From Puccinia triticina (taxonomy: Eukaryota; Basidiomycota; Pucciniomycetes; Pucciniales; Pucciniaceae): a stretch of 64,000 nucleotides of DNA. This document shows positions 7,151 to 50,371 of the stretch, piece by piece (the stretch's first letter is position 1; each line of letters begins with the position of its first letter). The stretch lies in assembly GCF_026914185.1 (NCBI RefSeq), contig NC_070562.1, forward strand, positions 1,426,001 to 1,490,000. The letters are read 5' to 3'. A model generated the notes under the pieces. It searched no databases. It was not told the origin of the DNA and was given only the letters and a program-made list of their open reading frames with translations. The translations under genes were made by a program, and so were the position numbers.

Positions 7151-9048
7151 GGTCATCTTGAGGATTCAAGCTCTCAAGCTGACCTGTAAACACTCGGATG
7201 AGTGTGTACAGGCCAGCATTGTGTCTGCCCAGGTGCAGGGCCCTGACAACCAAAAGTTTTGGTTTGAAGGATGTCAGGGCCCTGTGAGCTTGGTCGGATA
7301 CTTAAAGGGCTGGGGGGGGGGAGCTGTTTGTCCCCCCAGGGGATCTGGTTTCGTCCACCCCCTCCCTGAAGGCCCCCTATTTCATTTGAGTAGGCCCCTT
7401 CTTGATTTCAAAAAACAAAAATTCCAAACCCAAACAAAACTTTAACAATTTAAACTTTAAACTCACACAAAACAAGAAAATTTAAACTTTGAACTCACAC
7501 AACACAAAAAAATTTAATCTTTGAACTCACACAAAACAAAAACATTTGAACACAATCAAAACACACAAAAACATAAAATAAACTCACACAAAAACAATAA
7601 TTATATAAACTCAAACAAACCATAAACTCTGTACATAATGAAAAAAACTTAAACTTTTTAAACTTAAGGAACACAAATTTCAAACTTTTAATTTCTTCTG
7701 CCTACAATTTCAATGAAATGCAGCATGAACCCATGAAGTCAGTTTCTGTGAGACTGTGGTTTTAATAAACTTGGATTCTGAATCTAAGCCTAATTTAACC
7801 TAGGGTAACTCACTTAAAGGTACCCTTAATTGTTATTCCTTCCTTGTGTAAATTGACTTCAAAGCTTAATAGGTGCACCACATCCTGCGTGGATGCACCT
7901 TTATGCTTATGTACATAAGCACATATGCTTTTACCCCAGTTTCAGTGACGAAACTGAGGTGTTGTGTATAGTTTAGAAAATAGCAATATTGTTGTGTGGC
8001 GCATCCAAGCCCGCGTGCTCTGTAGCCAGGCGCACCTGACAACAGTAGATCCCTGTTGCCAGGAGCTCAAGCCCCCACGCGTGGTGTACACATATGCATA
8101 ATGCATAAACCAGCCCGCAACCAAAGCGCCTGGGTTACCAGTACCCAAGAATGGGCCAGAATACGCCCCAATAGGAATATTACATGTGTTACACGTACCA
8201 CACACATGTAATTTACAGCTAGATAAGGTATAATAACCATGTCATCAAATATGGACATCTTACACGTCTCACGAGACCAGAATACCCCTTGTAGCGTGTG
8301 CAGGAGAGCATAGAAGGCGCCCTAGCTCCCTCCTACGCCTCAGCACACATGACCTACACATGTAATAAATATGTAGAATGGGGCAAATGAACTGGAGCAT
8401 TCAATGAGCGCCTCCAGAACATGTATTAACCACTGCTTACACATGTACAACTCCACAGAATCCAGTTCTAGTACATTCTGTGGCACATTTCCACGGAAAT
8501 AAGTGTCACACAACCCCCCAACCAGCCCCTATGACGTGGTAAAGATGGTATAAAATCACGCAGAACCTCCGCAATTGATCCTTGGCAACCCTTGTATCCA
8601 AGTCACAAGGTTCCACGACCATCAGCGCCCTCCTGCGCAGCCAATTTGCCTCAGAAGGCGCCCACAAGTGTCCCCATGTCCCCTGGGCGCCCCTGGAGGC
8701 CTGCCTAGGCTATAAAAAGGGCTCTTTCTCCGCCCAAAAGGAGATTTTCGATGCTTATTTACACTATTATATTTTACCCGCCTTCAACATGTGCTCAATA
8801 GCCTGTTTCCAGCCTGGTAAGACCCTTAGTAGTTATTTTTAGCCTCATTTTTTCGCCAGAAACTACCCAGTTTCCATCCAGCCTTCAGAATCACCTTCTT
8901 CAAGCGCTTCCAACTTCCCATTTTCTATCCTGTAGAACCTCAAGACCCTAAGGGCTTTTTACTAGTAAGTTTAAGCCCCTTCTCTTAAGATTCTCCGCCA
9001 TTCTTTGCTGGGATTTAAACCACCCCTGTTCACAGGCCCCAGTGTGTT
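7151..9048. other. Repeat-derived region with AT-rich minisatellite
   Basis: 7430-7690 is a degenerate AT-rich tandem array around AACTCACACAAAACA and TTTAAACTTTGAA. At 8710-8730 a TATA-like box (CTATAAAAAGGGC) precedes a C-rich stretch, which could be an LTR-type promoter, but no element ends were found. No gene is supported. Confidence 0.4.
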
Positions 9049-10140
9049 CTCCCAGGAAAACGGCTTTAGCAGTTTGCCTGTGGAGTTTTTCTCCCAGGAA
9101 AACTCCTTTAGCAGTTTGCCTGTGGAGTTTTGCTCCCAGGAAAACTTCTAAAGCAGTTTGCCTGTGGAGTTTTGCTCCCAAGAAAACTGCTAAAGCAGTT
9201 TGCCTGTGGAGTTTTGCTCCCAGGAAAACTGCTAAAGCAGTTTGCCTGTGGAGTTTTGCTCCCAGGAAAACTGCTAAAGCAGTTTGCCTGTGGAGTTTTG
9301 CTCCCAGGAAAACTGCTAAAGCAGTTTGCCTGTGGAGTTTTGCTCCCAGGAAAACTGCTAAAGCAGTTTGCCTGTGGAGTTTTGCTCCCAGGAAAACTGC
9401 TAAAGCAGTTTGCCTGTGGAGTTTTGCTCCCAGGAAAACTGCTAAAGCAGTTTGCCTGTGGAGTTTTGCTCCCAGGAAAACTGCTAAAGCAGTTTGCCTG
9501 TGGAGTTTTGCTCCCAGGAAAACTGCTAAAGCAGTTTGCCTGTGGAGTTTTGCTCCCAGGAAAACTGCTAAAGCAGTTTGCCTGTGGAGTTTTGCTCCCA
9601 GGAAAACTGCTAAAGCAGTTTGCCTGTGGAGTTTTGCTCCCAGGAAAACTGCTAAAGCAGTTTGCCTGTGGAGTTTTGCTCCCAGGAAAACTGCTAAAGC
9701 AGTTTGCCTGTGGAGTTTTGCTCCCAGGAAAACTGCTAAAGCAGTTTGCCTGTGGAGTTTTGCTCCCAGGAAAACTGCTAAAGCAGTTTGCCTGTGGAGT
9801 TTTGCTCCCAGGAAAACTGCTAAAGCAGTTTGCCTGTGGAGTTTTGCTCCCAGGAAAACTGCTAAAGCAGTTTGCCTGTGGAGTTTTGCTCCCAGGAAAA
9901 CTGCTAAAGCAGTTTGCCTGTGGAGTTTTGCTCCCAGGAAAACTGCTAAAGCAGTTTGCCTGTGGAGTTTTGCTCCCAGGAAAACTGCTAAAGCAGTTTG
10001 CCTGTGGAGTTTTGCTCCCAGGAAAACTGCTAAAGCAGTTTGCCTGTGGAGTTTTGCTCCCAGGAAAACTGCTAAAGCAGTTTGCCTGTGGAGTTTTGCT
10101 CCCAGGAAAACTGCTAAAGCAGTTCGCTTGTGGAGTTTTG
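9049..10140. repeat. Minisatellite: 26 copies of a 42-bp unit
   Basis: From CTCCCAGG at 9049 to 10140 there are exactly 26 x 42 bp. Each unit carries the dyad AACTGC-TAAA-GCAGTT. The first four units and the last one carry substitutions, while the internal units look identical, the usual pattern of homogenisation by unequal exchange. Because 42 is divisible by 3, the array stays open in several frames (a 14-residue repeat). I do not think it encodes a protein. The array sits directly against the second copy of the 791-bp satellite block. The block copy at 832 has only a partial unit there, so the expansion happened at one locus only. Confidence 0.95.
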
Positions 10141-10907
10141 CTCCCAGAGCAGGTAAAAGCTTGCTGGGCAGGTAAAAGACCGCCGAGCAGGTACTTTTAC
10201 CTGCTCGACCATTGGGATGAACTGCTCGCCGAGCAGGTACAGTTACAGGTACCTGCTCCGGCGCGTCCAGCAGGTCAACTGGCCAAGCAAATAACAGCGC
10301 CGAGCAGGTAATTCTTCCCGCTTCAAAGCGGCTACAGCTATCTGCTTGCAGAGCAGGCCAACCTTCTTACCAAGCAGGTAAAAGCAACTGCTTGGCGGGC
10401 AGGTCATCCTAATGGCCGAGCAGGTACTGTTACCTGCGTGGCAAGCAGGATGACCCGCTGGCCAAGCCGAAACAGGTACCTGTAACTGTACCCGCCCGGC
10501 GACCAGGTTGATGGCCGAGCAGGTAAAAATACCTGCTCGGCGACCTTTTACCTGCTCGGCGAGTAGGTCAACCTGCTCGCCGAGCAGGTACCGTTACCTC
10601 CTTGCCAGTAGGATGACCTGCTGGCCGAGACGGAGTACGTACCTGTAACCAGGCGACCAGATCATCCTGACGGCCGAGCAGCTAAAAGTACCCGCTCGGC
10701 GAACTTTTACCTGCTCGCCGAGCAGGTACTGTTTCCTGGCCAGCAGGTTGACCTGCTGGCCGAGTCGGAGCAAGTACCTGTAACCGTACAAGCTCGGCGA
10801 GCAGGTCATCCTGATGGCCGAGCAGGTAAAAGAGCTTTTACCTGCTCGGCGAGTAGGTCAGCATGCTCGCCGAGCAGGTACTTTTAACCTCTTTTAACTG
10901 CTTGGCC
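10117..10907. repeat. 791-bp palindromic GAGCAGGT satellite block, copy 2
   Basis: Direct repeat of 832-1622 with the same length. This copy keeps CpG at positions where copy 1 has TpG or CpA, so it is the less decayed copy. It shares its first ~24 bases with the last 42-bp minisatellite unit. After 10907 related GAGCAGGT words continue with a different sequence. Confidence 0.85.
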
Positions 10908-14555: not shown

Positions 14556-15380
14556 TGTGGTGTTCAATCTTGTACACGCGGGGTCAACTTTAGAACTCGC
14601 GACGGCGCGCGGGAGACATCAAGACGCGTGGAGGATCAATTTTCCCGGATGTAACCCGTTTCAGGACTCAATCTTTCCGGATCTTTGGCGCGCTGGTTCC
14701 CTTTCTACAATTGCTTTTGGATCTTTTCTTTTGTTTCCTTGCTTTCTTTTATTTTTATTTTTTTTCGCTCTCAGTTGTTGTTTCATTTCTCATATGCGCG
14801 TGTTGGATGGTTGTGCTATGTGCTGGGTTGGTTTGGTTTTGTGTTTTGTTTCCTTTTGTCTGTTTCCTCTCTTTTGTGTTTGTTGCGCGCGTGGGTGTAT
14901 GATGAAGGTCCCGCTGCGTGCTGCGCCCGGAGTCTAAGTTCTGTTCGAACTTAGACAATGGGACGGCACGGGAAGACCCTGAACCATAATCTTCCTATCA
15001 AAATTTTTACGGATCACCTTATCAGCGCACTCGGGGCGCCTTCTGAGCCTTATCCATCCCAACGATCGGGATACTCTTTCATCACGCACGTGGCGTTTTT
15101 TCTTGTCGATCCTCATTCTTCCTGACCCCGCCTTCCGGCGCACTTCGACGACCGCGACATCCCAAACTTTCATCATCCTTCCCGGTTTCCTTTTTTTTTT
15201 CCTTTCTCCTCTCAACTCACAACCCCGCCGACGCGCGCTCAATCGCCGTCGTAAATCAAACACCCCCCTACCTCATCGCTTACAGATCCCCCCTTCTTCC
15301 CGCGACCAATCCCCGGAGGGCATTTCCCAACCTTTTCCCCTCCAACAACTGCCGCTGCCTGGCACGGACGGAGTTCCACA
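14556..15380 (+). repeat. Element A 5' LTR
   Basis: 825-bp LTR with TG..CA ends. It contains a pyrimidine-rich middle (14700-14870), a 10-bp stem-loop at 14932-14956, and a C/T-rich 3' half. It differs from the 3' LTR at least within the stem-loop (G versus A) and near the end (CTGCC versus CCGCC). Confidence 0.95.
14932..14956 (+). other. Conserved LTR stem-loop (element A)
   Basis: GTCTAAGTTC pairs with GAACTTAGAC around a TGTTC loop. The element B LTR has the equivalent hairpin (TCCAAGTTC/GAACTTGGA) in the same context (preceded by CCGGAGT, followed by ATGGGA), with a T-A to C-G compensatory change. It is probably transcribed. Its role is unknown. Confidence 0.7.
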
Positions 15381-15382
15381 TT

Positions 15383-15432
15383 TGGTCCCCCGAGCCGGGA
15401 TCGAACCAGCGACCTCAAGATTTACAGTCTCG
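15383..15432 (+). promoter_or_regulatory. Extended primer-binding site: complement of tRNA-Tyr 27-76
   Basis: The reverse complement is the exact 3' half of a tRNA-Tyr: anticodon stem CGAGA/TCTTG, loop CTGTAAA (anticodon GTA), variable loop AGGTC, T arm GCTGG-TTCGATC-CCGGC, acceptor strand TCGGGGG, discriminator A and CCA. That is 50 nt, positions 27-76. It crosses the usual intron site (37/38) without an intron and includes the non-genomic CCA. It is therefore a copy of mature tRNA. A normal PBS is about 8-18 nt. Confidence 0.9.
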
Positions 15433-15538
15433 CCAATTTTTCACGGTCTCGAGACGCTTGGCGGTCCTCTTTCTTCTTTCTTTTCTTTCTTTCTTTCTTT
15501 TTTTTAGTGTTCAGCGGCGGAGGCATAGGAGCTTAGAA

Positions 15539-15649
15539 GTAAGTCCTCCCAGTTTGTGCACCTCCAGGGCGTCTGCTACACAAGTCAAAGCATTACTTTA
15601 GCCACCGCTGTGAGCCACTCGAATTTTTCGCATACTCTTTTCCAATCAG
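15539..15649 (+). other. Intron-like cassette 1 (element A, 5' leader)
   Basis: Starts GTAAGT after TTAGAA, then CCTCC, GTGCACCTCC, GCCACCGCTGTGAGCC and a pyrimidine tract ending CAG, 111 bp in all. The Gag ATG follows 20 bases later. Three more copies occur in A and four in B. Confidence 0.75.
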
Positions 15650-15669
15650 GTTTCTTTTCCTCGCTTGCG

Positions 15670-17805
15670 ATGGCCGACCCAGTAGAAGGCGCAAGGCGCG
15701 TGAAGATCAAGCCTCAGGACAAAGGCTTGGGTTTCGACGGTACGCATGTCGAGCGGTTTCTAGCGGATTACCAGCTGGCCGCGGACTTGGACGGCGCGTC
15801 AGAGTTTGATATGGCGCAGCAAGTGCGTTTCTTTGTGCGCAAGGTTGAGGTCAAGGACGTGTTGGAGACTCTTGACGGGTACGACCCGCCGAATTGGACT
15901 TCGCTCAAGGCTGCCATGCTCGCGTACTGGGGCCAGGTCGACACGGCGCGTTTCACCTTGCCGAATTTAGAGGCCTTGGCTCAATCGTGGATTGCTAAGG
16001 GTGGGGTCTCGTCTGTGGTGGATTATCAAGACTTTCGGCGCGTCTGGGAGCCGATACAATCCTATCTTCTTCGCAAAGCCCATATTGACTCAGTGGAGGA
16101 AATTCGGACTCTCTATTATCGATCGCTGTCAAGTGGAGTTCAGGAGCGCGTTAGAGATCACCTGATCAAGGCTAACACTATGATCACTACCCTTGATAAC
16201 CGATTTAAGCTTCCCGCTTTCGAGATCTTGAAGACCGCGGTCGCGGAGGTGATGAAAGGCCAAACGGCTTTGACTTTTGAAGACGCAAGGACTTCTTCAC
16301 CTGTTCCCGCAGGTCCTTTTCAGCAGGCCAACGACGTCATGCGGAAGATTGAGCAAGATCGTCGCCCTAAAGCTCCCGCCGCGTCAGAGAAGCCACCCGC
16401 TACCATCGACGACATCTCCCAGATGCTGCAATCTTTTGAGCAGCGCTTGGAGAAGAAATACGGTGCTCAGCCTCCTCAGTCCTCTGGCAAGGTACCGCCG
16501 GCGGAGCGCGGTCCTTTGGTTTGCTACTACTGTCACCGTGAAGGGCACGGTACCGGACGCTGTTTCGAGCTCAAGAAAGACAAAGAAGCCAATCTGGTCG
16601 AGCAGAAGGGCAACAATTTCTTCTTGCCCAACGGGGCACTTATCCCTTTCGATTCCTCGCGGCCCATTCGTCATGTGGTCGCCTCTTTCCAACCTCCCCC
16701 TACCGCTAGCGTAGTCACGCCGGAATTCCGCGCTACGTGTGGCTCCCTCGATCCCTGGTACCCCCCGGCTGTCACTTCGCAGTCTTTTTCTGGATCCTAC
16801 GAGGCGGATCCTGCGCGAAAGAAGCACGAGGCTCCAAATCCTTACAAGGCGCCTGCGGTTCCTCCTTCAGCCGTGCGGAAGCCGGTTAAAAAGTCTACGG
16901 CGCGTGCTCCCAATTCTGAAGTAGATGACTCAGATATGGAAGCTGAATTGTTTGAGAGGGTTCCTGCTTCTCCGACCGCGGGCCCTTCTTCTCCCGAGCA
17001 GTCTTCTTCCGAGCAGCCAGCCAAGCCTGCTAGCGCTGCGCCCAAGGTGCGCTTCGAGCGCGGTATCTCCAAGGATCATCCAAACGCCGTCGAAGGCGTG
17101 CTCAAGAAGATCTCCGGTCTCAAGGTTCCGGATTTGTCGGTTTCGGAGCTTTTAGCGGTGGCACCGTCTGTCGCTGAAGGCATGAAGCGATGGGTATCGC
17201 GCAAGCGCGTAGAGGTTGGAGCGGAGGAGCTGAAGGTCTCTTCGGGTACTCTGGCTGAGGGCGTGGATTTCAAGGCGAACGGATTTGAGCCGCGGCTCTA
17301 CTCGTGCCCGTTGGGCTATTTGCCGTGCTTGGTGGGAGACGAGGAGAGTAATGCATCTCCTTTGGTGGATTCTGGATCCCAGCTTAACCTTATCTCGGAT
17401 GCGATGGCTAACAAGTTCAATATTAGCCCGCGCGTCAACTTTAGTTCAGCAGTCTACGGAATTGGCAATCAAGCCTGTGAACTGGTTGGTGTCGCTGAGG
17501 ACGTTCCGCTCCGCATTGGCAAATCCATCGTGGGCACGTGTCACTTCTGGATCACTCGAATGGCCGGGCCCATGATCTTGGGGCGGCCCTTTCTCATGGA
17601 TTTCGACGCCACTCTCAACTTTTCGGCAGAAGTAGGCGAGAGGATCTTGCTCCCGGACTCAAATGGGAGGAGGATAGAGGTTTCCCTCTGCGCGACGGAT
17701 TCGGGACGGTGGGAGCGCGAATTCCCTAGCAATGGGAAGAAGGCGATCCTGACGCGCTCAAACACGGCGCGCGACGACCCTGTCGAAGGGCGTCATTTTT
17801 TATGA
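15670..17805 (+). CDS. gag: Gag-protease polyprotein of element A
   Basis: 711-residue structural protein plus aspartic protease of a gypsy element, acting in cytoplasmic virus-like particles. The MADPVEG start at 15670 is preferred because it follows cassette 1 and matches the start of element B's Gag. An in-frame upstream ATG at 15556 lies inside the cassette. Residues ~1-220 are the capsid-like region. A zinc knuckle CYYCHREGHGTGRC (CX2CX4HX4C) lies at about 285-298. A proline/serine-rich linker follows (~320-470). A retroviral-type protease lies near 560-670, with PLVDSGSQ as the active-site Asp loop and ILGRPF near its end. The ORF ends at TGA 17803-17805, overlapping the Pol ATG as ATGA. 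This suggests termination-reinitiation rather than frameshifting for Pol. Confidence 0.92.
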   Translation: MADPVEGARRVKIKPQDKGLGFDGTHVERFLADYQLAADLDGASEFDMAQQVRFFVRKVEVKDVLETLDGYDPPNWTSLKAAMLAYWGQVDTARFTLPNLEALAQSWIAKGGVSSVVDYQDFRRVWEPIQSYLLRKAHIDSVEEIRTLYYRSLSSGVQERVRDHLIKANTMITTLDNRFKLPAFEILKTAVAEVMKGQTALTFEDARTSSPVPAGPFQQANDVMRKIEQDRRPKAPAASEKPPATIDDISQMLQSFEQRLEKKYGAQPPQSSGKVPPAERGPLVCYYCHREGHGTGRCFELKKDKEANLVEQKGNNFFLPNGALIPFDSSRPIRHVVASFQPPPTASVVTPEFRATCGSLDPWYPPAVTSQSFSGSYEADPARKKHEAPNPYKAPAVPPSAVRKPVKKSTARAPNSEVDDSDMEAELFERVPASPTAGPSSPEQSSSEQPAKPASAAPKVRFERGISKDHPNAVEGVLKKISGLKVPDLSVSELLAVAPSVAEGMKRWVSRKRVEVGAEELKVSSGTLAEGVDFKANGFEPRLYSCPLGYLPCLVGDEESNASPLVDSGSQLNLISDAMANKFNISPRVNFSSAVYGIGNQACELVGVAEDVPLRIGKSIVGTCHFWITRMAGPMILGRPFLMDFDATLNFSAEVGERILLPDSNGRRIEVSLCATDSGRWEREFPSNGKKAILTRSNTARDDPVEGRHFL

Positions 17806-20800
17806 GTAAAGTTGATCTGTCAAGTGGCCGTGTTAATCTAGGATCTCGCCCACGCGCCGCTGGATCAACTCATCATCAAGAGATTCACCGGCTTTGTTCC
17901 ATTTTCTCGTCCAATAATCAAAATATCAAATCGAAAAAACATGAAGAAAACACTAAACCTCTCAAAAACATATCTTCAGATCTCAGGTCACTTCTTTTTT
18001 CCGGCTCTATTGGCGTTCTTTCTCACGGTCTTTTTTCTTTCTCTGGCGCGGCTCTTGGCGCGTTTTCTTTCGGCGATGGTTTATTGGAGCAGGGTGGAAT
18101 GGAGGATATGGGAAATTCGCGGAGGTTTGGGAGACAGGAAGTAAGTTCCTCCCAGTTATGCACCTCCCAGGGTTCTACTACGTCGTCATTAGCATTACAT
18201 GCCACATCTGTGAGCCTCGCCGGTTGTTCGCCTCTATCTCCCGTTTTAGGCGACTTCCCATCTTCTCAAACTCGTCTCCGCGACGAGAATAAACTAGCGT
18301 CTCAATCCCGTCTCCGCGACGAGAATAAACTAGCGTCTCAATCCCCTCTCTGCGAAGAGAATAAACTAGATACGTCCTATGGCGTCCTCCGCAATGAGGG
18401 TAAAACTAGACTCCGCGATGAGTCTAAACTCCCGAGCCTCCGCAACGAGGAAAAACTAAAGATCCTCCGCAATGAGGTGAATCTACGATTTTCTTTATTT
18501 TGCGAGGGAGGTGAAGTGGAATTTGGGGCACCGTGGAGGGACTTTGGACTGAAAGTAAGTTCCAACCAAAGTGCACCTCCGGAGCGTGATGCTATACCAA
18601 GTTGTTGTACCCTACCGCGTGCCACAGTCGTGAGCAAAGGACATTCGCCTTGTTTTTCGTTTTCAGACAAGGCACCCTTCGAAGATCGCGCCGAACACCG
18701 CACGTGGACACTGATGGAGTGCGGTTTGAAGTTCCAAGAGCAACTTGCGCTGGTGGATGCGTGGTCGCGGGGCGAGTTCCTCACGTTTGCGGCGAAGTAT
18801 AAGCCGGTTTCGAGGAAGGTTAAGCCGGTCAATCAGGCCATGCCTCAAGGTCTAAATCCTCCTTTGCGTCGACCTCCTCTATCACGCGATCCTTATCGGC
18901 CCCTCCCGCGTTCTCTAGCCGGCTCTTTCGTACCGCGCGGACGCGTCACTGCAGACCGGCTTGAAGTCGTGAATTTCGGACCGGACGGGTGGCTATGGCC
19001 TGATGAGTTGAATGTTATCAAGAATGTCTTAGCCGAACGTAATCTAGCCATAGCCTTTGACGAGTCAGAGCGTGGCCTCTTGAAGGATTCATACGGGTTA
19101 CCCTACATCATTCTCGTTGTCGAACACGAGCCGTGGCAGAAGAAAAAGATACCAATCCCGGCCGCTATGTTAGACAAATTCATCAGCCGTGTCCGTGAGC
19201 GGGTTACTACGGGCTTGTACGAGCAGTCTACCTCAAGCTACTCATCTCCGGTCTTCTGCGTGCTTAAGAGTAACGGTAAACTGCGTATAGTTCACGACCT
19301 TCAGCTGCTAAACAAGGTGACTATTAAAGATGCCGGAGTTCCCCCTGCTACAGAAGACTTCGTCGAATCCTTCGCCGGCCGTGCTTGTTACGGTTTGGGA
19401 GACATAATGGGAGGATATGATGAGCGCGCGCTCGACCCTATCTCTCGTCCTTTAACCACTTTCAATACTCCGTTGGGGCGTTTTCAGCTCACTCGCCTCC
19501 CTCAAGGAGCCACGAATTCTGTGGCCGTGTACCAGGCTCAGATGATGTGGATCCTCCAAGAGGAGATCCCTGATCATGCTGGTATTTTCATCGACGACGG
19601 CGGCATCAAGGGGCCAGCGTCCGACTACGACAATGAAGTTCTCACTTGGCACTCTGGTATTCGGCGTTTCATTTGGGAGTACGCGACAACCCTTGAACGG
19701 ATTCTTTTTCGAATCGAAGAAAGCGGACTCACGGTTTCTGCGGCTAAATTGGCAGCTTGCGTGCCGGCTCTCGAGATCGTGGGCAATGTAGTATGCAAGG
19801 AGGGCCGGAGAATGGCAAAGACTAAAGTTAATAAAATTCTCTCTTGGCCAACTCCGGCTAACGCGACGGAAATTCGAGGTTTCCTGGGGGTTGTGGTCTA
19901 CGTTCGCATTTTTATTCCGGCACTTTCGGAAATATGTCTTCCGCTGCGACGCCTTACGCGGAAGGACGTGGATTGGATTTGGTCGGCGGAGTGCGACGCG
20001 GCGTTTGAAAAGCTCAAGTTGATTGTAGGCAAGGACATTGTGCTGGTCAAAATCGAATACGGCCCGGATGCAGGCAAGATCAAACTGGCGGTGGATTCCA
20101 GCTTCCACGCGGCGGGTGCGGTTCTCACCCAGCAAGATTCAAATGGCCTTGATCGCCCCGCTCTCTACGAGTCTCTTTTGTTTTCGGATGTCGAGTCGCG
20201 TTACTCTCAGCCAAAGCTCGAATTGTGTGGTGTAGCGCGGATACTCAAGAAGCTGCAGACCGTTCTTTGGGGGCAGCATTTTGAGCTCCAAGTCGACGCG
20301 ATCTCTTTGATCCAGATGATTAACTCCCCCAGCTTACCCAACGCCCCGATGACGCGCTGGGTGGCTTTTATTCAGCTTTTTTCCTTCGACATCGTTCACC
20401 GTCCGGGTAAATCTTTTACCATGCCGGACAGGCTGTCTCGACGACCGATGGAGGACGATGAGTCCATCCCAGATGCTGAGTTCGATGAAGACGCACCTCT
20501 CATTCATCCTCGATACGTCGGCGCGTCTGGTGCTCAAGGAGAGTATACTGGGTTTCAGGAGGGCTATTGGCGGATGATGGAGAGTTTTCTGGCCACGTTA
20601 TCTAAGCCTAAGGAGATGAATGCTAAAGACTTTCGTGCTTTGAAGCGCAGATCAGCGGAGTTCTTCTTACAGTCCGGGCGCCTCATGAAGAGAGGAAGCC
20701 CCCTGCCAAAGATTGTCGTAACCATTCCCGCAAAACAGGACGAGATCCTCAATCAGCTCCATGAAAGCCTGGGCCACCGAGGCACTACGGAAACTTATCG

Positions 20801-21821
20801 CCGTGTGGCGGAGCGCTTTTGGTGGCCTTCGCTCAAGCAGGCCGTAGTGAAATGGTGTCAGAGTTGTGACGCATGTCAAAAGAGGGACCTCCGTCGGCCT
20901 CAAGAAGTTCATTACCCGACTGGAGAGTCCACGGTCTTTGGTCGCGTCTCGATGGACGCAGTTCATTTGAAAGCTAGCGGCGCCAAATATCTCATTGTCG
21001 CACGGGACGACTTCTCTGGCTGGGTGGAAGCCAAAATTCTCAATAATTTGACCTCAGAGGCTGTGGCTACATTCCTACAAGAACATTGGACGATGCGTTA
21101 CGGGCTAGCACAATCATATTCGACTGACGGTGGATCGGAATTCGGCGGCGCGTTGGCCGACGTGTTGCGGGCACTTCCCGGGCACCATCGTGTTTCTACT
21201 CCTTACTACCCTGAAAGTCAGGGTATGGTTGAGCGCGGGCACGGGCCACTCAAAGCCGCCCTGGTGAAATTGGCTGGCGAGAGCGGCAAGAACTGCCGGA
21301 AATTTCTTCCCTTGGTGCTCTTTGCGGATAGAATCTCGACCAAACGGACCACCGGCTATTCCCCATTCGAGCTGGTTTTTGGCCAGCGGGCCGTTCTTCC
21401 CTTAGATCTAGAGATGGAATCTTTCTTAGGCGTCGATTGGGAGTCGGTGACGAATACTACCGATCTGCTGGCGGCGCGTTCCCTTCAATTGGAGCGCAGC
21501 GAGGAAACGCGTGGCAAGGCGTACCAGAAGATGATGGAATCGAGGGGCGAGTCAGTCCGGTACTGGGAGGAAAGGCGCGCGGGTCATCAGCGGGAACCTT
21601 TCAAGACGGGCGAGCTAGTTTTGGCGTACAATCGATCTCTCGAGGTTCAGTGGGGCCAACTTTTCGCGCATAGGTGGAACGGTCCCTATCGCGTCGTGAA
21701 ACAGGTCCAGGGTGGATCCTATGTCCTGGCGGAGTTGGATGGGACGGAACTTAAACGACGATTTTCGGCGGATCAGGTGAAGCGCTACTTTTCGCGTGGA
21801 GGCACTGGAGAACAAAAGTAA
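17802..21821 (+). CDS. pol: Pol polyprotein of element A (RT, RNase H, integrase)
   Basis: 1339 residues starting at the ATG that overlaps the Gag stop. Residues 1-~345 are unlike known Pol. They contain two translated intron-like cassettes (18141-18249, 18555-18666) flanking an LRDExKL repeat. RT runs from about 400 to 640, with LKSNGKLRIVHDLQ, FQLTRLPQGATNS and FIDD (Asp 598/599). RNase H follows (VDSSFHAAGAVLT near 765). The integrase zinc site H..H..CQSCDAC lies at about 985-1025, and the D,D,E residues at about 1050, 1107 and 1142. A GPY module (HRWNGPYRVV) lies near the C-terminus. There is no chromodomain. The stop TAA lies inside the GTAAGT of cassette 4. Known function: reverse transcription and integration. 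Confidence 0.93.
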   Translation: MSKVDLSSGRVNLGSRPRAAGSTHHQEIHRLCSIFSSNNQNIKSKKHEENTKPLKNISSDLRSLLFSGSIGVLSHGLFSFSGAALGAFSFGDGLLEQGGMEDMGNSRRFGRQEVSSSQLCTSQGSTTSSLALHATSVSLAGCSPLSPVLGDFPSSQTRLRDENKLASQSRLRDENKLASQSPLCEENKLDTSYGVLRNEGKTRLRDESKLPSLRNEEKLKILRNEVNLRFSLFCEGGEVEFGAPWRDFGLKVSSNQSAPPERDAIPSCCTLPRATVVSKGHSPCFSFSDKAPFEDRAEHRTWTLMECGLKFQEQLALVDAWSRGEFLTFAAKYKPVSRKVKPVNQAMPQGLNPPLRRPPLSRDPYRPLPRSLAGSFVPRGRVTADRLEVVNFGPDGWLWPDELNVIKNVLAERNLAIAFDESERGLLKDSYGLPYIILVVEHEPWQKKKIPIPAAMLDKFISRVRERVTTGLYEQSTSSYSSPVFCVLKSNGKLRIVHDLQLLNKVTIKDAGVPPATEDFVESFAGRACYGLGDIMGGYDERALDPISRPLTTFNTPLGRFQLTRLPQGATNSVAVYQAQMMWILQEEIPDHAGIFIDDGGIKGPASDYDNEVLTWHSGIRRFIWEYATTLERILFRIEESGLTVSAAKLAACVPALEIVGNVVCKEGRRMAKTKVNKILSWPTPANATEIRGFLGVVVYVRIFIPALSEICLPLRRLTRKDVDWIWSAECDAAFEKLKLIVGKDIVLVKIEYGPDAGKIKLAVDSSFHAAGAVLTQQDSNGLDRPALYESLLFSDVESRYSQPKLELCGVARILKKLQTVLWGQHFELQVDAISLIQMINSPSLPNAPMTRWVAFIQLFSFDIVHRPGKSFTMPDRLSRRPMEDDESIPDAEFDEDAPLIHPRYVGASGAQGEYTGFQEGYWRMMESFLATLSKPKEMNAKDFRALKRRSAEFFLQSGRLMKRGSPLPKIVVTIPAKQDEILNQLHESLGHRGTTETYRRVAERFWWPSLKQAVVKWCQSCDACQKRDLRRPQEVHYPTGESTVFGRVSMDAVHLKASGAKYLIVARDDFSGWVEAKILNNLTSEAVATFLQEHWTMRYGLAQSYSTDGGSEFGGALADVLRALPGHHRVSTPYYPESQGMVERGHGPLKAALVKLAGESGKNCRKFLPLVLFADRISTKRTTGYSPFELVFGQRAVLPLDLEMESFLGVDWESVTNTTDLLAARSLQLERSEETRGKAYQKMMESRGESVRYWEERRAGHQREPFKTGELVLAYNRSLEVQWGQLFAHRWNGPYRVVKQVQGGSYVLAELDGTELKRRFSADQVKRYFSRGGTGEQK
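18141..18249 (+). other. Intron-like cassette 2 (element A, Pol N-terminus)
   Basis: GTAAGTTCCTCCC, ATGCACCTCC, TGCCACATCTGTGAGCC, pyrimidines, TTTTAG. 109 bp, phase 0 in Pol, with no stop codon when retained. Splicing would shift the frame (109 = 1 mod 3) and reach TAG after about 15 codons. Confidence 0.75.
18275..18477 (+). other. Array of seven CUC-YGCRAN-GAG hairpins in Pol (element A)
   Basis: Hairpins lie at 18275-18288, 18311-18324, 18347-18360, 18386-18399, 18410-18423, 18437-18450 and 18464-18477. Each has a CTC/GAG stem and a loop containing GCGA or GCAA. The next outer pair is T-A, T-A, T-A, C-G, A-T, C-G, C-G, so it is complementary in all seven while the base varies. The DNA also encodes the peptide repeat LR(D/N)ExKL. 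The outer pair joins a third codon position to a first codon position, so the covariation is not forced by the repeated peptide alone. Confidence 0.75.
18555..18666 (+). other. Intron-like cassette 3 (element A, before RT)
   Basis: GTAAGTTCCAACC, GTGCACCTCCGGAG, GTGCCACAGTCGTGAGC, pyrimidines, TTTTCAG. 112 bp, phase 0, open when retained. The same length is found in element B. Confidence 0.75.
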
Positions 21822-21948
21822 GTTCTCTCCAGTTGTGCACCTCCGGGCTAGATGCTCTTAAGTATTTTCGAAAACTCTACTCTATGCCACATTTGTGAGC
21901 ACCGCGGCGGCCCTTGGTTTCTTTTCCTTCTCTTTCTGGACCTCTTAG
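21818..21948 (+). other. Intron-like cassette 4 (element A, across Pol stop)
   Basis: GTAAGTTCTCTCC, GTGCACCTCCGGGC, ATGCCACATTTGTGAGC, a long pyrimidine tract, CTCTTAG. 131 bp. The Pol stop TAA is bases 2-4 of the cassette, so removing it fuses Pol in frame with an ORF that stays open to 22402 in the 3' LTR and encodes two hydrophobic stretches. Confidence 0.75.
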
Positions 21949-22010
21949 GCGCGGATTTCAGTTCAATTTTCGGCGACAGGCGCGCAGCAGTCTAGGGACA
22001 GACTGCATTT

Positions 22011-22020
22011 GGGGAGGAGA
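22011..22020 (+). promoter_or_regulatory. Polypurine tract of element A
   Basis: GGGGAGGAGA directly precedes the TG of the 3' LTR. Confidence 0.85.
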
Positions 22021-22845
22021 TGTGGTGTTCAATCTTGTACACGCGGGGTCAACTTTAGAACTCGCGACGGCGCGCGGGAGACATCAAGACGCGTGGAGGA
22101 TCAATTTTCCCGGATGTAACCCGTTTCAGGACTCAATCTTTCCGGATCTTTGGCGCGCTGGTTCCCTTTCTACAATTGCTTTTGGATCTTTTCTTTTGTT
22201 TCCTTGCTTTCTTTTATTTTTATTTTTTTTCGCTCTCAGTTGTTGTTTCATTTCTCATATGCGCGTGTTGGATGGTTGTGCTATGTGCTGGGTTGGTTTG
22301 GTTTTGTGTTTTGTTTCCTTTTGTCTGTTTCCTCTCTTTTGTGTTTGTTGCGCGCGTGGGTGTATGATGAAGGTCCCGCTGCGTGCTGCGCCCGGAGTCT
22401 AAGTTCTGTTCAAACTTAGACAATGGGACGGCACGGGAAGACCCTGAACCATAATCTTCCTATCAAAATTTTTACGGATCACCTTATCAGCGCACTCGGG
22501 GCGCCTTCTGAGCCTTATCCATCCCAACGATCGGGATACTCTTTCATCACGCACGTGGCGTTTTTTCTTGTCGATCCTCATTCTTCCTGACCCCGCCTTC
22601 CGGCGCACTTCGACGACCGCGACATCCCAAACTTTCATCATCCTTCCCGGTTTCCTTTTTTTTTTCCTTTCTCCTCTCAACTCACAACCCCGCCGACGCG
22701 CGCTCAATCGCCGTCGTAAATCAAACACCCCCCTACCTCATCGCTTACAGATCCCCCCTTCTTCCCGCGACCAATCCCCGGAGGGCATTTCCCAACCTTT
22801 TCCCCTCCAACAACTGCCGCCGCCTGGCACGGACGGAGTTCCACA
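22021..22845 (+). repeat. Element A 3' LTR
   Basis: 825 bp and almost identical to the 5' LTR. Its stem-loop at 22397-22421 carries one mismatch (CAAAC for CGAAC). It is followed by ACGC, the target duplication. Confidence 0.95.
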
Positions 22846-39861: not shown

Positions 39862-39979
39862 CTAAAACAAACGAAAAGAGGAGGGGTTCCCCGCGAGCGG
39901 CTCACGACAGTGGCTGGAGTAGAGCTTACGACTATGATGGCAGTAGAGCCCGAGGTGCATACTAAGGAGGGGGACTTAC
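39862..39979 (-). other. Intron-like cassette 4 (element B, across Pol stop)
   Basis: On the minus strand: GTAAGTCCCCCTCC, ATGCACCTCGGGC, GCCACTGTCGTGAGCC, TTTTCGTTTGTTTTAG. 118 bp. The Pol stop TAA (39976-39978) is inside. Removal joins Pol in frame with an ORF open to 39402 in the LTR, ending in a strongly hydrophobic segment. Confidence 0.75.
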
Positions 39980-42970
39980 TTCTGGTCAGTAATGCCCCCA
40001 CGCGGAAAGTACCGCTTGACCTGATCCGCCGCGAAACGGCCTTTGAGCTCCGTCCCGTCAAGCTCGGCGAGGACGTAGGAGCCCCCTTGAACCTGCTGGA
40101 CGATCCGGTAGGGCCCGTTCCACTTGTGGGCGAAAAGCTGCCCCCACTGCACTTCTAGCGATCAATTGTAGGCGAGGACGAGGTCGCCAGGCTTGAGTGG
40201 ATCCCAAAATTTACCGAGGTTCTTTTCGTGCCAGTAACGGATAGACTCTTGCCGCGAGTTCATCATTCGATCATACGCAAGACGCCGAGAATCTTCGCTC
40301 CGCTCAAGCTGTCGAGATCGAGCCACCAACAGATCCGAAGTGTCACGTACGTCTTCCCAGTCGACGCCCAGAAAGGATTTGATGTCTAGGTCAATTGGGA
40401 GCGCTGCCCGCTGCCCAAAAATCAACTCGTAAGGCGAGTATCCCGTAGTTTGCTTTGTCGAAATCCGATCAGCGAACAGCACCAGGGGCAAGAATTTGCG
40501 ACAGTTCTTGCCCGAGTCGCCTGCTAACTTGACTAGCGCCGCTTTCAAAGGCCCGTGCCCGCGCTCGACCATGCCTTGAGCTTCGAGGTAGTAAGGCGTT
40601 GAGACCCTGTGCTGACCTGGAAGGGCCCTCAGCATCTCCGCAAGAGCGCCACCGAACTCCGATCCGCCGTCGGTGGAATAGGACCTAGCCAAACCATACC
40701 TCATGGTCCAGTGTTCCTGGAGGAAGGCGGCCACCGCCTCCGAGGTAATGTTATTGAGAAACTTTGCCTCCACCCACCCAGAAAAATCATCGCGCGCGAC
40801 TATAAGATATTTGGCGCCGCCCGCCTTTATGTGAACCACGTCCATTGATACCCGCCCAAAAACAGTCGCCTCTCCGGTCGGGTACCGCATCTCTAGGGGC
40901 CGGCGGAGGTCCCTCTTCTGGCAGGGCTCACAGCTCTGACACCAGCACGCGACGGCCTGCTTCAAAGAGGGCCACCAGAATCGGTCCGCAATCCGGCAAT
41001 AAGTTTCTGCAACTCTGCGGTGCCCCAAGCCTTCGTGGAGATTTCCTAGGATTTCTTCTTGCTTGCTGGGTATCGTGACGACAATTCGAGGTAGCGGGCT
41101 GCCGCGCTTCATAAGCCGATTGGCCTGAATGAAAAATTCAGATGACTTGCGCTTAAGGGCCTGAAACTCCTTAGTGCTCAACCCGGGTGGGTGAACCAGA
41201 GTCGTGAGGTACTGCTCTAACTTCCGCCAAAAACCTTCTTGATACCCGCTGTAAGAGTGACCGGAGCTCGCTGAATACGCCTGCAAAGGTTTAACGTGAG
41301 GCGCGTCTTCATCGAAGTCAGAAGCCGGTGGATCTGAGTCGTCGTCCCCTTGAGGGCGCCTGGAGAGACTGTCGGGAAACGTGAATGCTTTGCCTGGCCG
41401 ATGGACAATGTAAAAGGAGAAGAGTTGAATAAAGGCGACCCAACGGGTCATCGGAGCGTTCGGTAAGCTGGGCGCGTTAATCATTTGAATGAGGGATTGC
41501 GCGTCGACTTGGAGCTTGAAATACTGGCCCCACAACACCGTCTGGAGCTTCTTCAGTATCCTCGCCACCCCGCAGAGCTCGAGCTTAGCCTGAGAATAGC
41601 AAGATTCTACGTCCGTAAACAAAAGGGACTCGTACAACGCCGGTCGGTCCCGACCCTCCAAATCCGCCTGAGTGAGCACCGCTCCCGCCGCGTGGAAACT
41701 AGAGTCTACGGCGAGCTTAATTAGTCCTCCTTCAGGCCCATAGTTGATTTTTGCCAGCACAATGTCCTTGCCCACGATTGTTTTCAAAGCCGCGAAAGCC
41801 TCCTCGCACTCTGTCGTCCAAACAAATTCCGCGTCCTTCCTCGTCAGACGCCGCAAAGGTACACAAATTTGGGACAAGGAGGGAATAAAGATTCGGACAT
41901 ACACTACCACACCCAAGAACCCGCGCACCTCCGTCGCATCTTTTGGTTGAGGCCACGAGAGTATCTTGTTCACCTTGCTCCGCGCCATTTTCCGACCCTC
42001 CTTACAAACCACGTGCCCCACTATCTCAAGCGCCGGGACGCAGGCAGCTAACTTTGACGCGGACACCGTCAAGCCGGACTCCTCAATTCGAAAAAGAATC
42101 CGCTCCAGTGTCTCGGCGTATTCCCAAATGAATCGCCGAATGCCGGGATGCCACGAAAGGAGCTCGTTGTCGTAATCGGAAGTGGGCCCCTTTATACCCC
42201 CGTCATCGATGAAGATGCCAGCGTGGTCCGGAATCTCATCCTGGAGGATCCAGACCATTTGAGCTTGGTACACCGCCACCGAGTTGGTGGCTCCCTGGGG
42301 GAGACGCGTCAGCTGAAACCTCCCGAGAGGAGTATCAAAAGTTGTCAGAGGCCGCGTAATTGGATGCAGCGCGCGCTCGTCGTAGCCGCCCATAATATCT
42401 CCGAGCCTGTAGCAGGCCCGTCCAGAAAACGACTCCACGAAATCTTCCGTAGCCGGCGGGACGCCAGCATCCCTAACCGTGACCTTATTGAGCGGCTGGA
42501 GGTCGTGCACAATATGCAACTTCCCATTACTCTTGACTACACAAAAGAATGGGCTACTGTAGCTCGACGTAGATTGCTCGTACAGCCCGGTGCTGATGCA
42601 TTCTCTGATGAGTCGAATATACTCGTCCATCTTAGCTGCCGGTACCGGAATCTTCCTCTTTTGCCAAGGCTCGTGCTCCACGACCAGGATGATGTAAGGC
42701 ATCCCGTAAGATTCCTTAAGTAGTCCACACTCCGATTCCTGGAACGCAATCAACTGATTACGGAAGGAAAGAACATTTTTGATGAGGTCAAGCTCGCTAG
42801 GGTACAACCAGCCCGCCGGCGCGAAATTAACCACCGCTAGCCTCTCTTTGGTGACCCGCCCTTGGGGAACGAAAGGACCGGCGAGGGATCTTGGTAAACC
42901 ACAGTAAGGGTCCCGTGACAATGGAGGCCGTTGGAGTGGGGGGTTGATATCCTGCGGCATTGGCTGGTTG
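39976..42970 (-). pseudogene. pol: Element B Pol, RT to integrase part
   Basis: Closely matches element A Pol from just before RT to the C-terminus. RT has the same LKSNGKL/VKSNGKL, LTRLPQG and FIDD boxes. RNase H (VDSSFHAAGAVLT), the integrase zinc site (CQSCEPCQKR) and the DDE region (TDGGSEFGG) are present. A TGA at 40162-40164 replaces the Arg codon of AYNRSLEVQW (CGA to TGA, a CpG transition), truncating the GPY module. The ancestral stop is TAA at 39976-39978. The N-terminal part of the same gene lies beyond element D at 46695-47771. Confidence 0.9.
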
Positions 42971-42975
42971 ACCGG

Positions 42976-43296
42976 TGTAAACCCCCCTCCTCCTCTGGGG
43001 TTCACAAGGTGTCACCAATGGACACCTGCCCTGTCACAGACTTGTAGATAGCCCGTTCCTCCTCCTTCCTTGGCTCAGCAGAGAACTGACATGCAGTCTC
43101 TCTGAGCCAGGTAAGCTCCCTTCCTTTTGTCTCTCTTCTTTCCTTCTTCTTCCTCTCAAGCAGAGAACTGACATGCAGTCTCTCTGAGCCAGTCCTAGCA
43201 ATCAAAGCCCCCTGAGTTTGGTCCTAGAACTCCTCCTCCGCGCCCGTGCCATTGCTCCTCCGTCTCCAGCTCCAGTGAAGGGATTCAACCCTTACA
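42976..43296 (+). repeat. Element D 5' LTR
   Basis: 321 bp. Contains a ~30-bp direct repeat (AGAGAACTGACATGCAGTCT..GAGCCAG at 43079-43110 and 43162-43192) around a stretch that looks like a short intron (GTAAGC at 43111 to CAG at 43163). Confidence 0.92.
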
Positions 43297-43639
43297 CTTT
43301 TTTTTTCTAACACCCAAACTCTCAACCAACTCTATCCGTTCCGTTCCGTTCCGACTCTCTGTTCCGTTCCGTTCCGACTCCGACTATCCGTTCTGTTCCA
43401 AATCTGCTCCGCCCGACCTCAATTCCATCTCCAATGATTTTTTTTCTCGGTTTTTTTACTCCTTTCTTCCTTGGTTATTCCCTTGACAACCTCCCTTCCA
43501 ATCTCCAAACGCTCCAACATACCAAGAATGGCAACTAATCAGCCCAGATCACCGAGCATCCTGGCCTCGATCCCCAAAACGATGAAAACAAGGATTCGCG
43601 TTGGATACTTACTCGACCCCTTGTGCCAAGGCTTGCGGG

Positions 43640-45464: not shown

Positions 45465-45529
45465 CCGCTTCACTGCTTGACATTGCCACCAACAACCGAG
45501 GTGGCTCCCTCACGCCTCCCTCTCTTTCT

Positions 45530-46444: not shown

Positions 46445-46689
46445 CCCGTTCCTCCTCCTTCCTTGGCTCAGCAGAGAACTGACATGCAGTCTCTCTGAGC
46501 CAGGTAAGCTCCCTTCCTTTTGTCTCTCTTCTTTCCTTCTTCTTCCTCTCAAGCAGAGAACTGACATGCAGTCTCTCTGAGCCAGTCCTAGCAATCAAAG
46601 CCCCCTGAGTTTGGTACTAGAACTCCTCCTCCGCGCCCGTGCCATCGCTCCTCCGTCTCCAGCTCCAGTGAAGGGATTCAACCCTTACA
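46369..46689 (+). repeat. Element D 3' LTR
   Basis: 321 bp, directly after a purine tract and followed by the ACCGG target duplication. Confidence 0.92.
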
Positions 46690-46852: not shown

Positions 46853-46964
46853 CTGCGAATGAAGAGCGAAAGGTACATTCGGGGCTCACGAGTGTGGTGC
46901 GTGGTAGAGTTTTCGAAAGTTGCGGAGCATCACGCCTCGGAGGTGCACATTGGGAGGAACTTAC
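46853..46964 (-). other. Intron-like cassette 3 (element B)
   Basis: GTAAGTTCCTCCC, GTGCACCTCCGAGG, TTTCGAAAAC, CACCACACTCGTGAGC, TTCATTCGCAG on the minus strand. 112 bp, phase 0, open when retained, the same length as in A. Confidence 0.75.
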
Positions 46965-47044
46965 TTCTACCCCAAGTTGCCTCCACGGCAGAAAGTACTC
47001 CACTTCTCCCTCTTCGCATACCAATTTCCAGGAGCATAGTTTAT

Positions 47045-47271
47045 GCTCGTCGCGGATTCGGGTCGGATCTGATGTTGGTAGTTTCACCTCATCTCGGAGG
47101 ATCATTAGTTTTCCCTCGTCGCGGAGGCTCGGAAGTTTTGCCTCGTTGCGGAGGGCCCTTGCGGACACGCCTAGTTTATTCTCATCGCGGAGTGTCTTCA
47201 AACAAGACGAAACTAGTTTATTCTCATCGCGGAGAAGAGCGTCGGGAGGTAGTTTAGTCTCGTCGCGGAGA
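47045..47271 (-). other. Array of seven hairpins in Pol (element B)
   Basis: Plus-strand positions: 47045-47058, 47087-47100, 47114-47127, 47141-47154, 47180-47193, 47222-47235 and 47258-47271. The stem is CTC/GAG and the loop mostly contains GCGA, GCAA or GAGA. The outer pair is complementary in five of seven (C-G three times, T-A twice); two copies are decayed. Encodes the same LR(D/N)ExKL peptide repeat as element A. Confidence 0.7.
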
Positions 47272-47296
47272 CGAGACGAGTGAGATAGGGGTTCGC

Positions 47297-47411
47297 CTGG
47301 ACAAATAAACAAACCAGGATCCGGCGGGTCACTCACGAGTGTGGCCAAAGGTAATGTTTTCGACTTGACGGTAGAATCTACCCGGAGATGCATACTTTGG
47401 AGGGGACTTAC
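47297..47411 (-). other. Intron-like cassette 2 (element B)
   Basis: GTAAGTCCCCTCC, ATGCATCTCCGGG, AGTCGAAAAC, GGCCACACTCGTGAGTG, TTTATTTGTCCAG. 115 bp (1 mod 3, as in A), phase 0, open when retained. Confidence 0.75.
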
Positions 47412-47767
47412 TTCTGGTTTGAGTGCCCCCGCGGCATCACCAAGATGCAAGGCCTCTCTCGCGCCAGTCGCGCGGGCCCGTCGGATTCTTTTTGTTGGTT
47501 CAAGAGAAAAGGAGTCGGCAAGAAGAGGAATTGGAGATTGGAAGTTGGAATTGGCTCTGTTTTTTGATGTTTGACCATTTTGTAGATGTTTTTGGGTTTT
47601 AAAATTTTGACAAGAAGAGAACGGAGTCGGGAAAGAAGTGAAAGGAGTCGGAGACGAAAATGAAAATGGAGCTGATCGAAAGATTTGAGCCTCAGGAAAG
47701 GGAGTCGATTCACCGGACAGAATGCGAGGCTTGAGATTAAAACTGCCAGTCAACGAATCGACTCCCT

Positions 47768-49964: not shown

Positions 49965-50069
49965 CTGCGAAGGCAAACAAGCGAAATACGGGGGCGGCTC
50001 ACAGAGTGGCGATGATGTTTTCGACACGAGTGTAGACTTCGGAGGTGCTACTGAGTGGAGGGGACTTAC
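49965..50069 (-). other. Intron-like cassette 1 (element B, 5' leader)
   Basis: GTAAGTCCCCTCC, GCACCTCCGAAGTC, GTGTCGAAAAC, GCCACTCTGTGAGCC, TTTGCCTTCGCAG. 105 bp. Ends 27 bases before the ancestral Gag ATG. Confidence 0.75.
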
Positions 50070-50371
50070 TTCTACAACCTAAGTGCCCCGCCGCTGAACC
50101 CTAAAAAAGAGGAGAAGAAAACAAAAGGACAAGAGGAGAGCTCCGAGGGTGAATGACTCCTGAAACGTCTTGATCCCAATCAAAACGACGACTAGCGCGA
50201 TCGTTCGAAAGACGATGATGCCGAAACGCGATGACCAGTTGTCCTTGTTGAAGAAAATAAGATCAAGGATTTCAGTAATTGTTTTATGCGGAGATGTTTT
50301 GATGAGAGACCGGTAGAGAAGCGAAAAGAAAGAAAAATTGGAAACCGCTCAGAGCGCCTCAAAACCACAGC

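What the first reader, a model, noticed from the sequence alone, without database searches (positions are those of the whole stretch)
15539..21948. Four intron-like cassettes per element, conserved between two diverged gypsy retrotransposons
Seen: element A has cassettes at 15539-15649, 18141-18249, 18555-18666 and 21818-21948; element B has the equivalents at 49965-50069, 47297-47411, 46853-46964 and 39862-39979. All eight start GTAAGT, carry a TGCACCTCC-like box, then GCCAC..GTGAGC, then a pyrimidine tract and YAG. Those inside Pol are phase 0 and 1 mod 3 in length in both elements (109/115 and 112/112) and have no stop when retained. Cassette 4, whose interior is not translated, differs mod 3 (131/118). 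Spliced genomic RNA would lose introns on reverse transcription, so conservation implies retention in genomic RNA and possibly regulated splicing. Inference: Pol comes from unspliced RNA, and splicing cassette 2 or 3 ends Pol early. The GTGAGC box may be the branch region. I know of no described gypsy element with a repeated intron module of this kind.
Basis: partly seen in the sequence, partly recalled or inferred. Interest (0 to 1): 0.92.

Follow-up and report, generated by a model that had tools for sequence, protein, structure and literature searches.

The report
Intron-like RNA tags in rust retrotransposons
Retrotransposons of this genome, likely a rust fungus, carry one intron-like sequence module up to five times each, kept in reading frame inside the enzyme gene and not found spliced out in the copies checked; it is predicted to fold around its splice donor and likely marks the full-length RNA for copying, so that splicing would disqualify an RNA.

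Summary
All eight cassettes are present. They belong to a module with 1,215 exact pattern hits in the 122.8-Mb genome against 0 for the reversed control. In-Pol modules keep codon spacing (36 of 36) and have no in-frame stop; leader and 3' modules do not keep it. Donor and acceptor are sharp: at acceptor 3, 167 copies have YAG and 2 hits (control 1) have another base for its A, a wobble position. No spliced copy was found in the checks made, although an intron of a copia element in the same genome has a precisely spliced copy. New: an exon box at -20 pairs with the intron CCTCC box and puts GTAAG in a predicted hairpin loop; branch consensus CTRAY is absent (0 of 68); the module recurs in a Ty1/copia lineage; a second gypsy lineage keeps the core without an acceptor. 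Best reading: a structured tag of genomic RNA, flanked by splice sites so that splicing would erase it. Splicing and packaging are inferred. BARE1 and HIV-1 are the nearest known logic. New variant of a known kind.

The parts
15515..15649 (+). Element A module 1 (leader): exon arm from 15515, intron-like part 15539-15649, 20 nt upstream of the gag-PR ATG (15670)
18117..18249 (+). Element A module 2, in Pol frame between PR and RT: exon arm from 18117, intron-like part 18141-18249 (109 nt, phase 0)
18531..18666 (+). Element A module 3, in Pol frame: exon arm from 18531, intron-like part 18555-18666 (112 nt, phase 0), 558 nt before the RT anchor
21794..21948 (+). Element A module 4: exon arm from 21794, intron-like part 21818-21948; the Pol stop TAA lies inside its GTAAGT
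49965..50093 (-). Element B module 1 with exon arm
47297..47435 (-). Element B module 2 with exon arm
46853..46988 (-). Element B module 3 with exon arm
39862..40003 (-). Element B module 4 with exon arm
15670..17805 (+). Element A Gag-PR frame; aspartic protease match (PF13975, below its curated cut-off)
17802..21821 (+). Element A Pol frame from the ATG overlapping the Gag-PR stop: RT, RNase H, integrase (PF00078, PF17917, PF17921, PF00665); runs through modules 2 and 3
18250..18554 (+). Spacer between modules 2 and 3 with seven CTCCGCRAYGAG-like repeats, all a multiple of 3 apart
14556..15380 (+). Element A 5' LTR; 3' LTR 22021-22845; 823 of 825 bases identical

Best explanation
Each cassette is one copy of a module that keeps splice-donor and splice-acceptor sequences at its ends and a conserved core between, and it likely works as a tag of the full-length genomic RNA that splicing would erase. 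The core is predicted to fold: the exon box GYGGAGG pairs with the intron box CCTCC, a second short stem lies inside, and GTAAG sits in the loop; a second hairpin, GCCAC-N3-5-GTG(A)GC, has one bulged A. Shown by sequence: modules sit at ORF borders (before Gag, between PR and RT, at the Pol stop), keep the reading frame where they must be read through, keep donor and acceptor, lack branch consensus, and were not found removed in the copies checked. Inferred: the hidden donor and missing branch site make splicing rare, so most RNA stays whole; whole RNA makes Gag-PR and Pol and is packaged through the cores; RNA spliced at module 2 or 3 (3n+1 long) can make only Gag-PR, and any spliced RNA loses part of the tag, so it is not copied back.
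For: 1,215 exact hits against 0 control. In-Pol modules: spacing 0 mod 3 in 36 of 36 and no in-frame stop, against 7 of 16 (leader) and 0 of 9 (3' module). Acceptor 3: 167 hits with YAG, the first 100 listed all CAG, against 2 (control 1) with another base in place of the A, a wobble position in the RT frame. AG within 20 nt after GTGAGC in 12 of 68 tails against 72% of random windows. Exon-intron pairing around the donor in 45 of 46 non-redundant modules; native halves -17.4 against -15.7 kcal/mol for swapped halves, 0 of 5000 swaps as good. CTRAY in 0 of 68. Junction pattern into acceptor 3: 2 hits, neither in an element; 171 of 194 exon boxes are followed by GTAAGT, and of six exceptions fetched, four are mutated donors and two unrelated DNA. 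Positive control: copia L048 lacks exactly the 85-nt GT..CTAAC..AG intron of L047, flanks 126 of 126 and 180 of 180 identical. Core conserved without an acceptor in L061-L063. Same module in the leader and at the ORF stop of a copia element. HIV-1 precedent for a sequestered donor in a packaging signal: PMC4576207, passages.
Against: No RNA data: neither splicing nor packaging was observed. Column-wise covariation is weak: RNAalifold keeps only the near-invariant hairpin, 0 pairs with compensatory change; in the pair count 84 of 500 shuffles reach the number of pairs with both-side changes, 28 of 500 the percentage paired, 21 of 500 the covariation score. The swap test is not significant for leader modules alone (503 of 5000, n=11) or 3' modules alone (503 of 5000, n=5). 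If the tag alone mattered, the sharp acceptor needs separate selection. L061-L063 look decayed, so their missing acceptor could be a lineage quirk. Sixteen of the 23 exon boxes without GTAAGT were not read. Relatedness of copies inflates all counts.
Confidence: 0.42

Rival explanations
1. BARE1-like regulated introns: the modules are ordinary but weak spliceosomal introns, and a fraction of RNA is spliced to give Gag-PR-only messages; the core boxes and the donor hairpin only tune splicing.
For: Donor, pyrimidine tract, AG depletion and a conserved acceptor AG at a wobble site; splicing of 2 or 3 would shift the frame of Pol; BARE1 has a 104-nt intron with the same effect and no spliced genomic copies amplified (PMC3735527, passages).
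Against: CTRAY in 0 of 68 modules; a second gypsy lineage keeps the core without an acceptor; splicing of module 1 would leave Gag-PR and Pol intact and splicing of module 4 would only move the Pol stop, yet no spliced exon box was seen among those read.
Confidence: 0.3
2. Decoy splice sites: the modules bind U1 and U2AF but are not spliced; their use is to block early polyadenylation, hold the RNA in the nucleus, or aid export of the long RNA.
For: Strong donor and acceptor with no branch consensus, and no spliced copies in the checks made. Module 1 begins 159 nt after the 5' LTR.
Against: Conserved CCTCC, AAAAC..CTAC and GCCAC/GTGAGC boxes are more than a decoy needs; donor GTGAGC in the first module of L061-L063 is a weak U1 site (strength by recall).
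Confidence: 0.18
3. Introners: a mobile intron family that inserts into many genes, retrotransposons included.
For: Many similar intron-like sequences in one genome.
Against: 20 of 20 sampled 10-kb loci hold retroelement coding sequence (L009 by 31 residues only); nearest neighbour of a module in another element is of the same position class in 56 of 63, which is descent in place, not fresh insertion.
Confidence: 0.04
4. Protein conservation only: the boxes are codons of a conserved Pol spacer.
For: Pol relatives in other data sets read through module 3 with a conserved VS..AP..AT.VS pattern.
Against: The same boxes recur outside Pol in the leader and at the ORF end, in other frames.
Confidence: 0.02

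Closest known systems
BARE1 (Ty1/copia, barley) alternatively spliced intron, PMC3735527 (passages)
   Same: About 100-nt retained intron in the coding frame; splicing shifts the frame so that only Gag is made; [quoted passage not shown]
   Different: One intron and no repeated structured module in the passages seen; packaged RNA there comes from a separate promoter; splicing there was shown by cDNA, here it is not shown
Ogre (Ty3/gypsy, legumes) intron: recalled; only its citation was seen
   Same: Gypsy-type element with an intron between PR and RT (recalled)
   Different: As recalled, splicing there joins the frame for Pol; here splicing would break it, and near-complete elements have four or five modules
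HIV-1 packaging signal with sequestered major splice donor, PMC4576207 (passages)
   Same: Splice donor held in base pairing; splicing breaks the packaging structure
   Different: One site in the leader; here modules are spread over the RNA and also lie in coding sequence; the packaging role here is inferred
Introner-like elements of fungi (PMC4457414, PMC9860276: listing and start of abstract only)
   Same: Family of similar intron-like sequences in one genome
   Different: The modules sampled here are with retroelements at fixed positions

Membership tests
U2-type spliceosomal intron | 5' splice site consensus | tested here: met
   GTAAGT in all eight; 171 of 194 exon boxes followed by GTAAGT
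U2-type spliceosomal intron | Pyrimidine tract and YAG with AG depletion | tested here: met
   Pyrimidine class means 0.70-0.84 before the first YAG; AG in 12 of 68 tails. Not met in L061-L063, 6 of 6 modules
U2-type spliceosomal intron | Branch consensus (CTRAY/YTNAY, recalled; in this genome CTAAC in the copia intron of L047 and CTAAT in a tubulin intron, by eye) | tested here: not met
   CTRAY 0 of 68, YTNAY 5 of 68 against 48% of random windows; tubulin
U2-type spliceosomal intron | Removed from RNA | not testable with these tools
   No RNA data held; no spliced genomic copy in the checks made
BARE1/Ogre-type retained retrotransposon intron | Intron in an LTR element whose splicing would change the Gag/Pol frame | tested here: met
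   Modules 2/3 of A are phase 0 and 3n+1; effect on RNA only predicted
BARE1/Ogre-type retained retrotransposon intron | Spliced RNA shown | not testable with these tools
   No RNA data
Introner | Insertions in many host genes | tested here: inconclusive
   20 of 20 sampled loci are retroelement loci; no gene-annotated survey of the 1,215 places
Retroviral-type packaging signal | Structured RNA lost on splicing | tested here: inconclusive
   Predicted donor hairpin spans exon and intron; second hairpin near-invariant, so without covariation
Retroviral-type packaging signal | Binds Gag and directs packaging | not testable with these tools
   Inferred only
Ty3/gypsy (elements A and B) | Domain order PR-RT-RH-INT | tested here: met
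   for A (PR match below its cut-off); B by order of piece matches
Ty1/copia (L023) | RVT_2 type RT, integrase before RT | tested here: met
   RVT_2 and gag_pre-integrs; integrase position read by eye from the frame

The most novel reading that the evidence does not exclude
One RNA module, shared between Ty3/gypsy and Ty1/copia elements of one genome and placed at the borders of their reading frames, is a splice-erasable identity tag of genomic RNA: a donor locked in an exon-intron hairpin, no U2-pairing branch site, and an internal bulged-A hairpin in its place, so that splicing state and copying state of the RNA are the same thing.
Probability: 0.27. Interest if true: 0.92.

Novelty: new variant of a known kind. 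Interest (0 to 1): 0.77.

Why it matters
How LTR elements keep spliced RNA out of the next generation is little known outside retroviruses and BARE. Here one genome offers over a thousand module copies, a natural control (a copia intron that was spliced and copied back) and a sister lineage with the core but no acceptor. The question can be tested from RNA reads. It would also show overlapping selection for codons, splice sites and RNA structure on the same 110 bases, repeated several times per element.

Tried and rejected
Rfam on window 14000-52000 at E up to 1: three matches, all below their gathering scores; one (E 0.87, 15407-15543) overlaps the exon arm and donor of module 1 and is taken as chance. 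RNAalifold on 59 modules found only the near-invariant hairpin; a test with short arms was weaker (58 of 2000 swaps as good) and led to the longer exon arm. Column register of the donor stem slips between modules, so column covariation was weak. Introners: rejected as main reading. One scan of viral contigs found no relative of P0001. Papers: (listings); PMC3735527, PMC4576207 and PMC9927501 (passages). Stalled-spliceosome silencing of transposons (Cryptococcus, listing only) was considered; nothing here tests it. The GTGAGC-is-branch idea was neither proved nor excluded. On rereading I mended one wrong remark of my own: B does have TTTTTTATGA.

Full report
What was checked. The whole genome behind the window (122.8 Mb, 18 contigs, unnamed) was searched by pattern: GTAAGT-N5-30-TGCACCTCC gives 952 hits against 3 for the reversed control, GTAAGT-N50-80-GCCACNNNNGTGAGC gives 1,215 against 0. 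Austropuccinia, Puccinia coronata and P. striiformis proteins among the named relatives make a rust fungus likely; that is inference.

Anatomy. Element A has LTRs 14556-15380 and 22021-22845, 823 of 825 bases identical, a Gag-PR frame from 15670 to 17805 and a Pol frame with RT, RNase H and integrase. Module 1 ends 20 nt before the Gag ATG, modules 2 and 3 lie between PR and RT, and module 4 begins at the Pol stop: the TAA of GTAAGT is the stop codon. Element B is alike on the other strand, with inserted DNA in Pol. Twenty loci of 10 kb were read, chosen from the first hits. They hold 60 of the 68 modules studied; the window holds eight. A covariance model built from 59 of them finds a further module in L019, its fifth. 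L013 and L019 have three in the Pol spacer. All 20 loci carry retroelement coding sequence, L009 by 31 residues only; fragments such as L009, L011 and L012 show one module.

Translation of the retained modules. In the 36 in-Pol modules the distance from GTAAGT to GTGAGC is a multiple of 3 in 36 of 36, with no stop in the frame read from the GT. In leader modules it is a multiple of 3 in 7 of 16 and in 3' modules in 0 of 9; seven further modules were of uncertain class: two of L010 in the Pol spacer (both 0 mod 3) and five others. Thirty of 36 are at phase 0 of the RT frame; six lie where that frame does not run back to the module. With a first-YAG rule 30 of 36 are 3n+1 long. Database proteins P0001 and P0006 (no organism given) and P0025 (P. 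coronata) read through module 3, and P0025 through module 2 as well; P0014 and P0032 lack the segment, P0051 shows no module peptide there; P0041, P0052 and P0103 were read but not aligned (nine of 120 listed proteins, 197 found). So the unspliced frame is kept, and the module is absent from some relatives.

Splice-site constraint. At acceptor 3, 167 hits have YAG before the conserved exon, the first 100 listed all CAG; 2 have another base in place of the A, control 1, and whether those two lie in elements was not looked at. In the RT frame that A is a wobble position. AG occurs in the first 20 nt after GTGAGC in 12 of 68 tails against 72% of random windows. Class means for pyrimidines in the 20 nt before the acceptor are 0.70-0.84, against 0.47-0.67 downstream. 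Donor and acceptor are therefore kept as RNA signals even where codons would let them go.

No spliced copies, with a positive control. A junction pattern into acceptor 3 gave 2 hits (control 1), neither in an element. Of 194 exon boxes (control 7) 171 are followed by GTAAGT (control 0). Of the 23 exceptions, six were fetched: four have mutated donors, two are unrelated DNA; a seventh is the GTAATT donor of L025. Sixteen were not read. Spliced RNA can return to this genome: copia copy L048 lacks exactly the 85-nt GTTCGT..CTAAC..CACAG intron of L047, with 126 of 126 and 180 of 180 identical flanking bases.

Structure. An exon box GYGGAGG about 20 nt before the donor pairs with the CCTCC box, with a second stem inside and GTAAG in the loop. 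Of 46 non-redundant modules (of 68), 45 fold with at least five exon-intron pairs. Native halves fold at -17.4 kcal/mol on average, swapped halves at -15.7 (sd 0.35), 0 of 5000 as good; within in-Pol modules 26 of 5000 (n=22), within leader modules 503 of 5000 (n=11), within 3' modules 503 of 5000 (n=5), within the unclassed 10 of 5000 (n=8). Column counts are weaker (covariation score reached by 21 of 500 shuffles, percentage paired by 28, pairs with both-side changes by 84, pair types by 240), since the stem slips in register. The GCCAC/GTG(A)GC hairpin has four invariant pairs of five and so gives no covariation.

No branch consensus. In the stretch from -60 to -12 of the acceptor, CTRAY occurs in 0 of 68 and YTNAY in 5 of 68, against 13% and 48% of random windows; the modules are related, so these are not 68 independent cases. 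The copia intron of L047 has CTAAC and a tubulin intron of the same genome CTAAT, read by eye. The consensus itself is recalled.

Beyond the main gypsy lineage. L023 is a copia element (RVT_2) with a module in the leader and one at the ORF end, where the stop TGA overlaps the donor GTGAG-TGA. Among its relatives, the five sampled at 76-84% identity all have the 3' module. Fifteen sampled from other copia lineages (42-50%) do not; only about 450 nt around the ORF end were read. L061-L063 are a second gypsy lineage (RT of L061 39-59% identical to that of A): each holds two modules in the Pol spacer with the core but with a purine-rich tail (pyrimidine 0.32-0.40, 3-6 AG in 40 nt, 6 of 6 modules) and no acceptor; the first has donor GTGAGC. 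In L061 both modules keep spacing 66, a multiple of 3, though its other frames look decayed.

Descent. The nearest neighbour of a module in another element is of the same position class in 56 of 63: the modules are old at their places.

Reading. The core has a use of its own (L061-L063), the ends are kept as splice sites in the main lineages, retention is built in, and removal is not seen even for modules 1 and 4, whose loss would leave the enzyme domains whole (loss of module 4 would move the Pol stop). The simplest account is a tag of genomic RNA that splicing erases, as in HIV-1, where the donor is sequestered in the packaging signal and splicing breaks it (PMC4576207, passages). BARE1 shows a retained 104-nt intron whose splicing leaves Gag only and whose spliced form was not amplified from the genome (PMC3735527, passages). 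Packaging and splicing here are inferred. I put the tag model at 0.42, BARE1-like regulated splicing at 0.30, decoy splice sites at 0.18.

Novelty. Ten literature searches were answered. No listing showed a repeated structured intron-like module in LTR elements; most subscription papers are not held, and listings were capped. I file it as a new variant of the retained-intron retrotransposon.

Noticed in passing
window 17796-17805 and B near 47768: The Gag-PR stop and the Pol ATG overlap in TTTTTTATGA, which is also a U UUU UUA -1 slippery heptamer (motif recalled) followed by UGA; seen in 6 of 11 copies tested and in B.
   Followed up: partly
window 18250-18554 and 46965-47296: Seven (A) and eight (B) CTCCGCRAYGAG-like repeats between modules 2 and 3, all spaced by multiples of 3; each could form a small CTC/GAG hairpin and encodes LRDE-like repeats.
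   Followed up: partly
window 15381-15427: The stretch after the 5' LTR of A looks like the complement of the 3' half of a tRNA over more than 40 nt (tRNA-Tyr by recall, not tested); B has nearly the same.
   Followed up: no
L046-L051: A different copia lineage has its own 3' intron-like stretch with CTAAC or TTAAC (by eye); one of six sampled copies (L048) is a precise spliced copy.
   Followed up: partly
L023 1989-2069 and 6962-7042: The copia element seems to have very short LTRs: only an 81-nt direct repeat flanks it.
   Followed up: no
window 42976-46668: Inserted DNA inside Pol of element B bounded by 300-nt direct repeats at 99% identity.
   Followed up: no
window 8923-10272 and 832-1594 / 10117-10880: A 42-nt tandem array and duplicated GAGCAGGT-rich repeats.
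   Followed up: no
window 14556-22845: Element A is young: its two LTRs differ at 2 of 825 bases.
   Followed up: no
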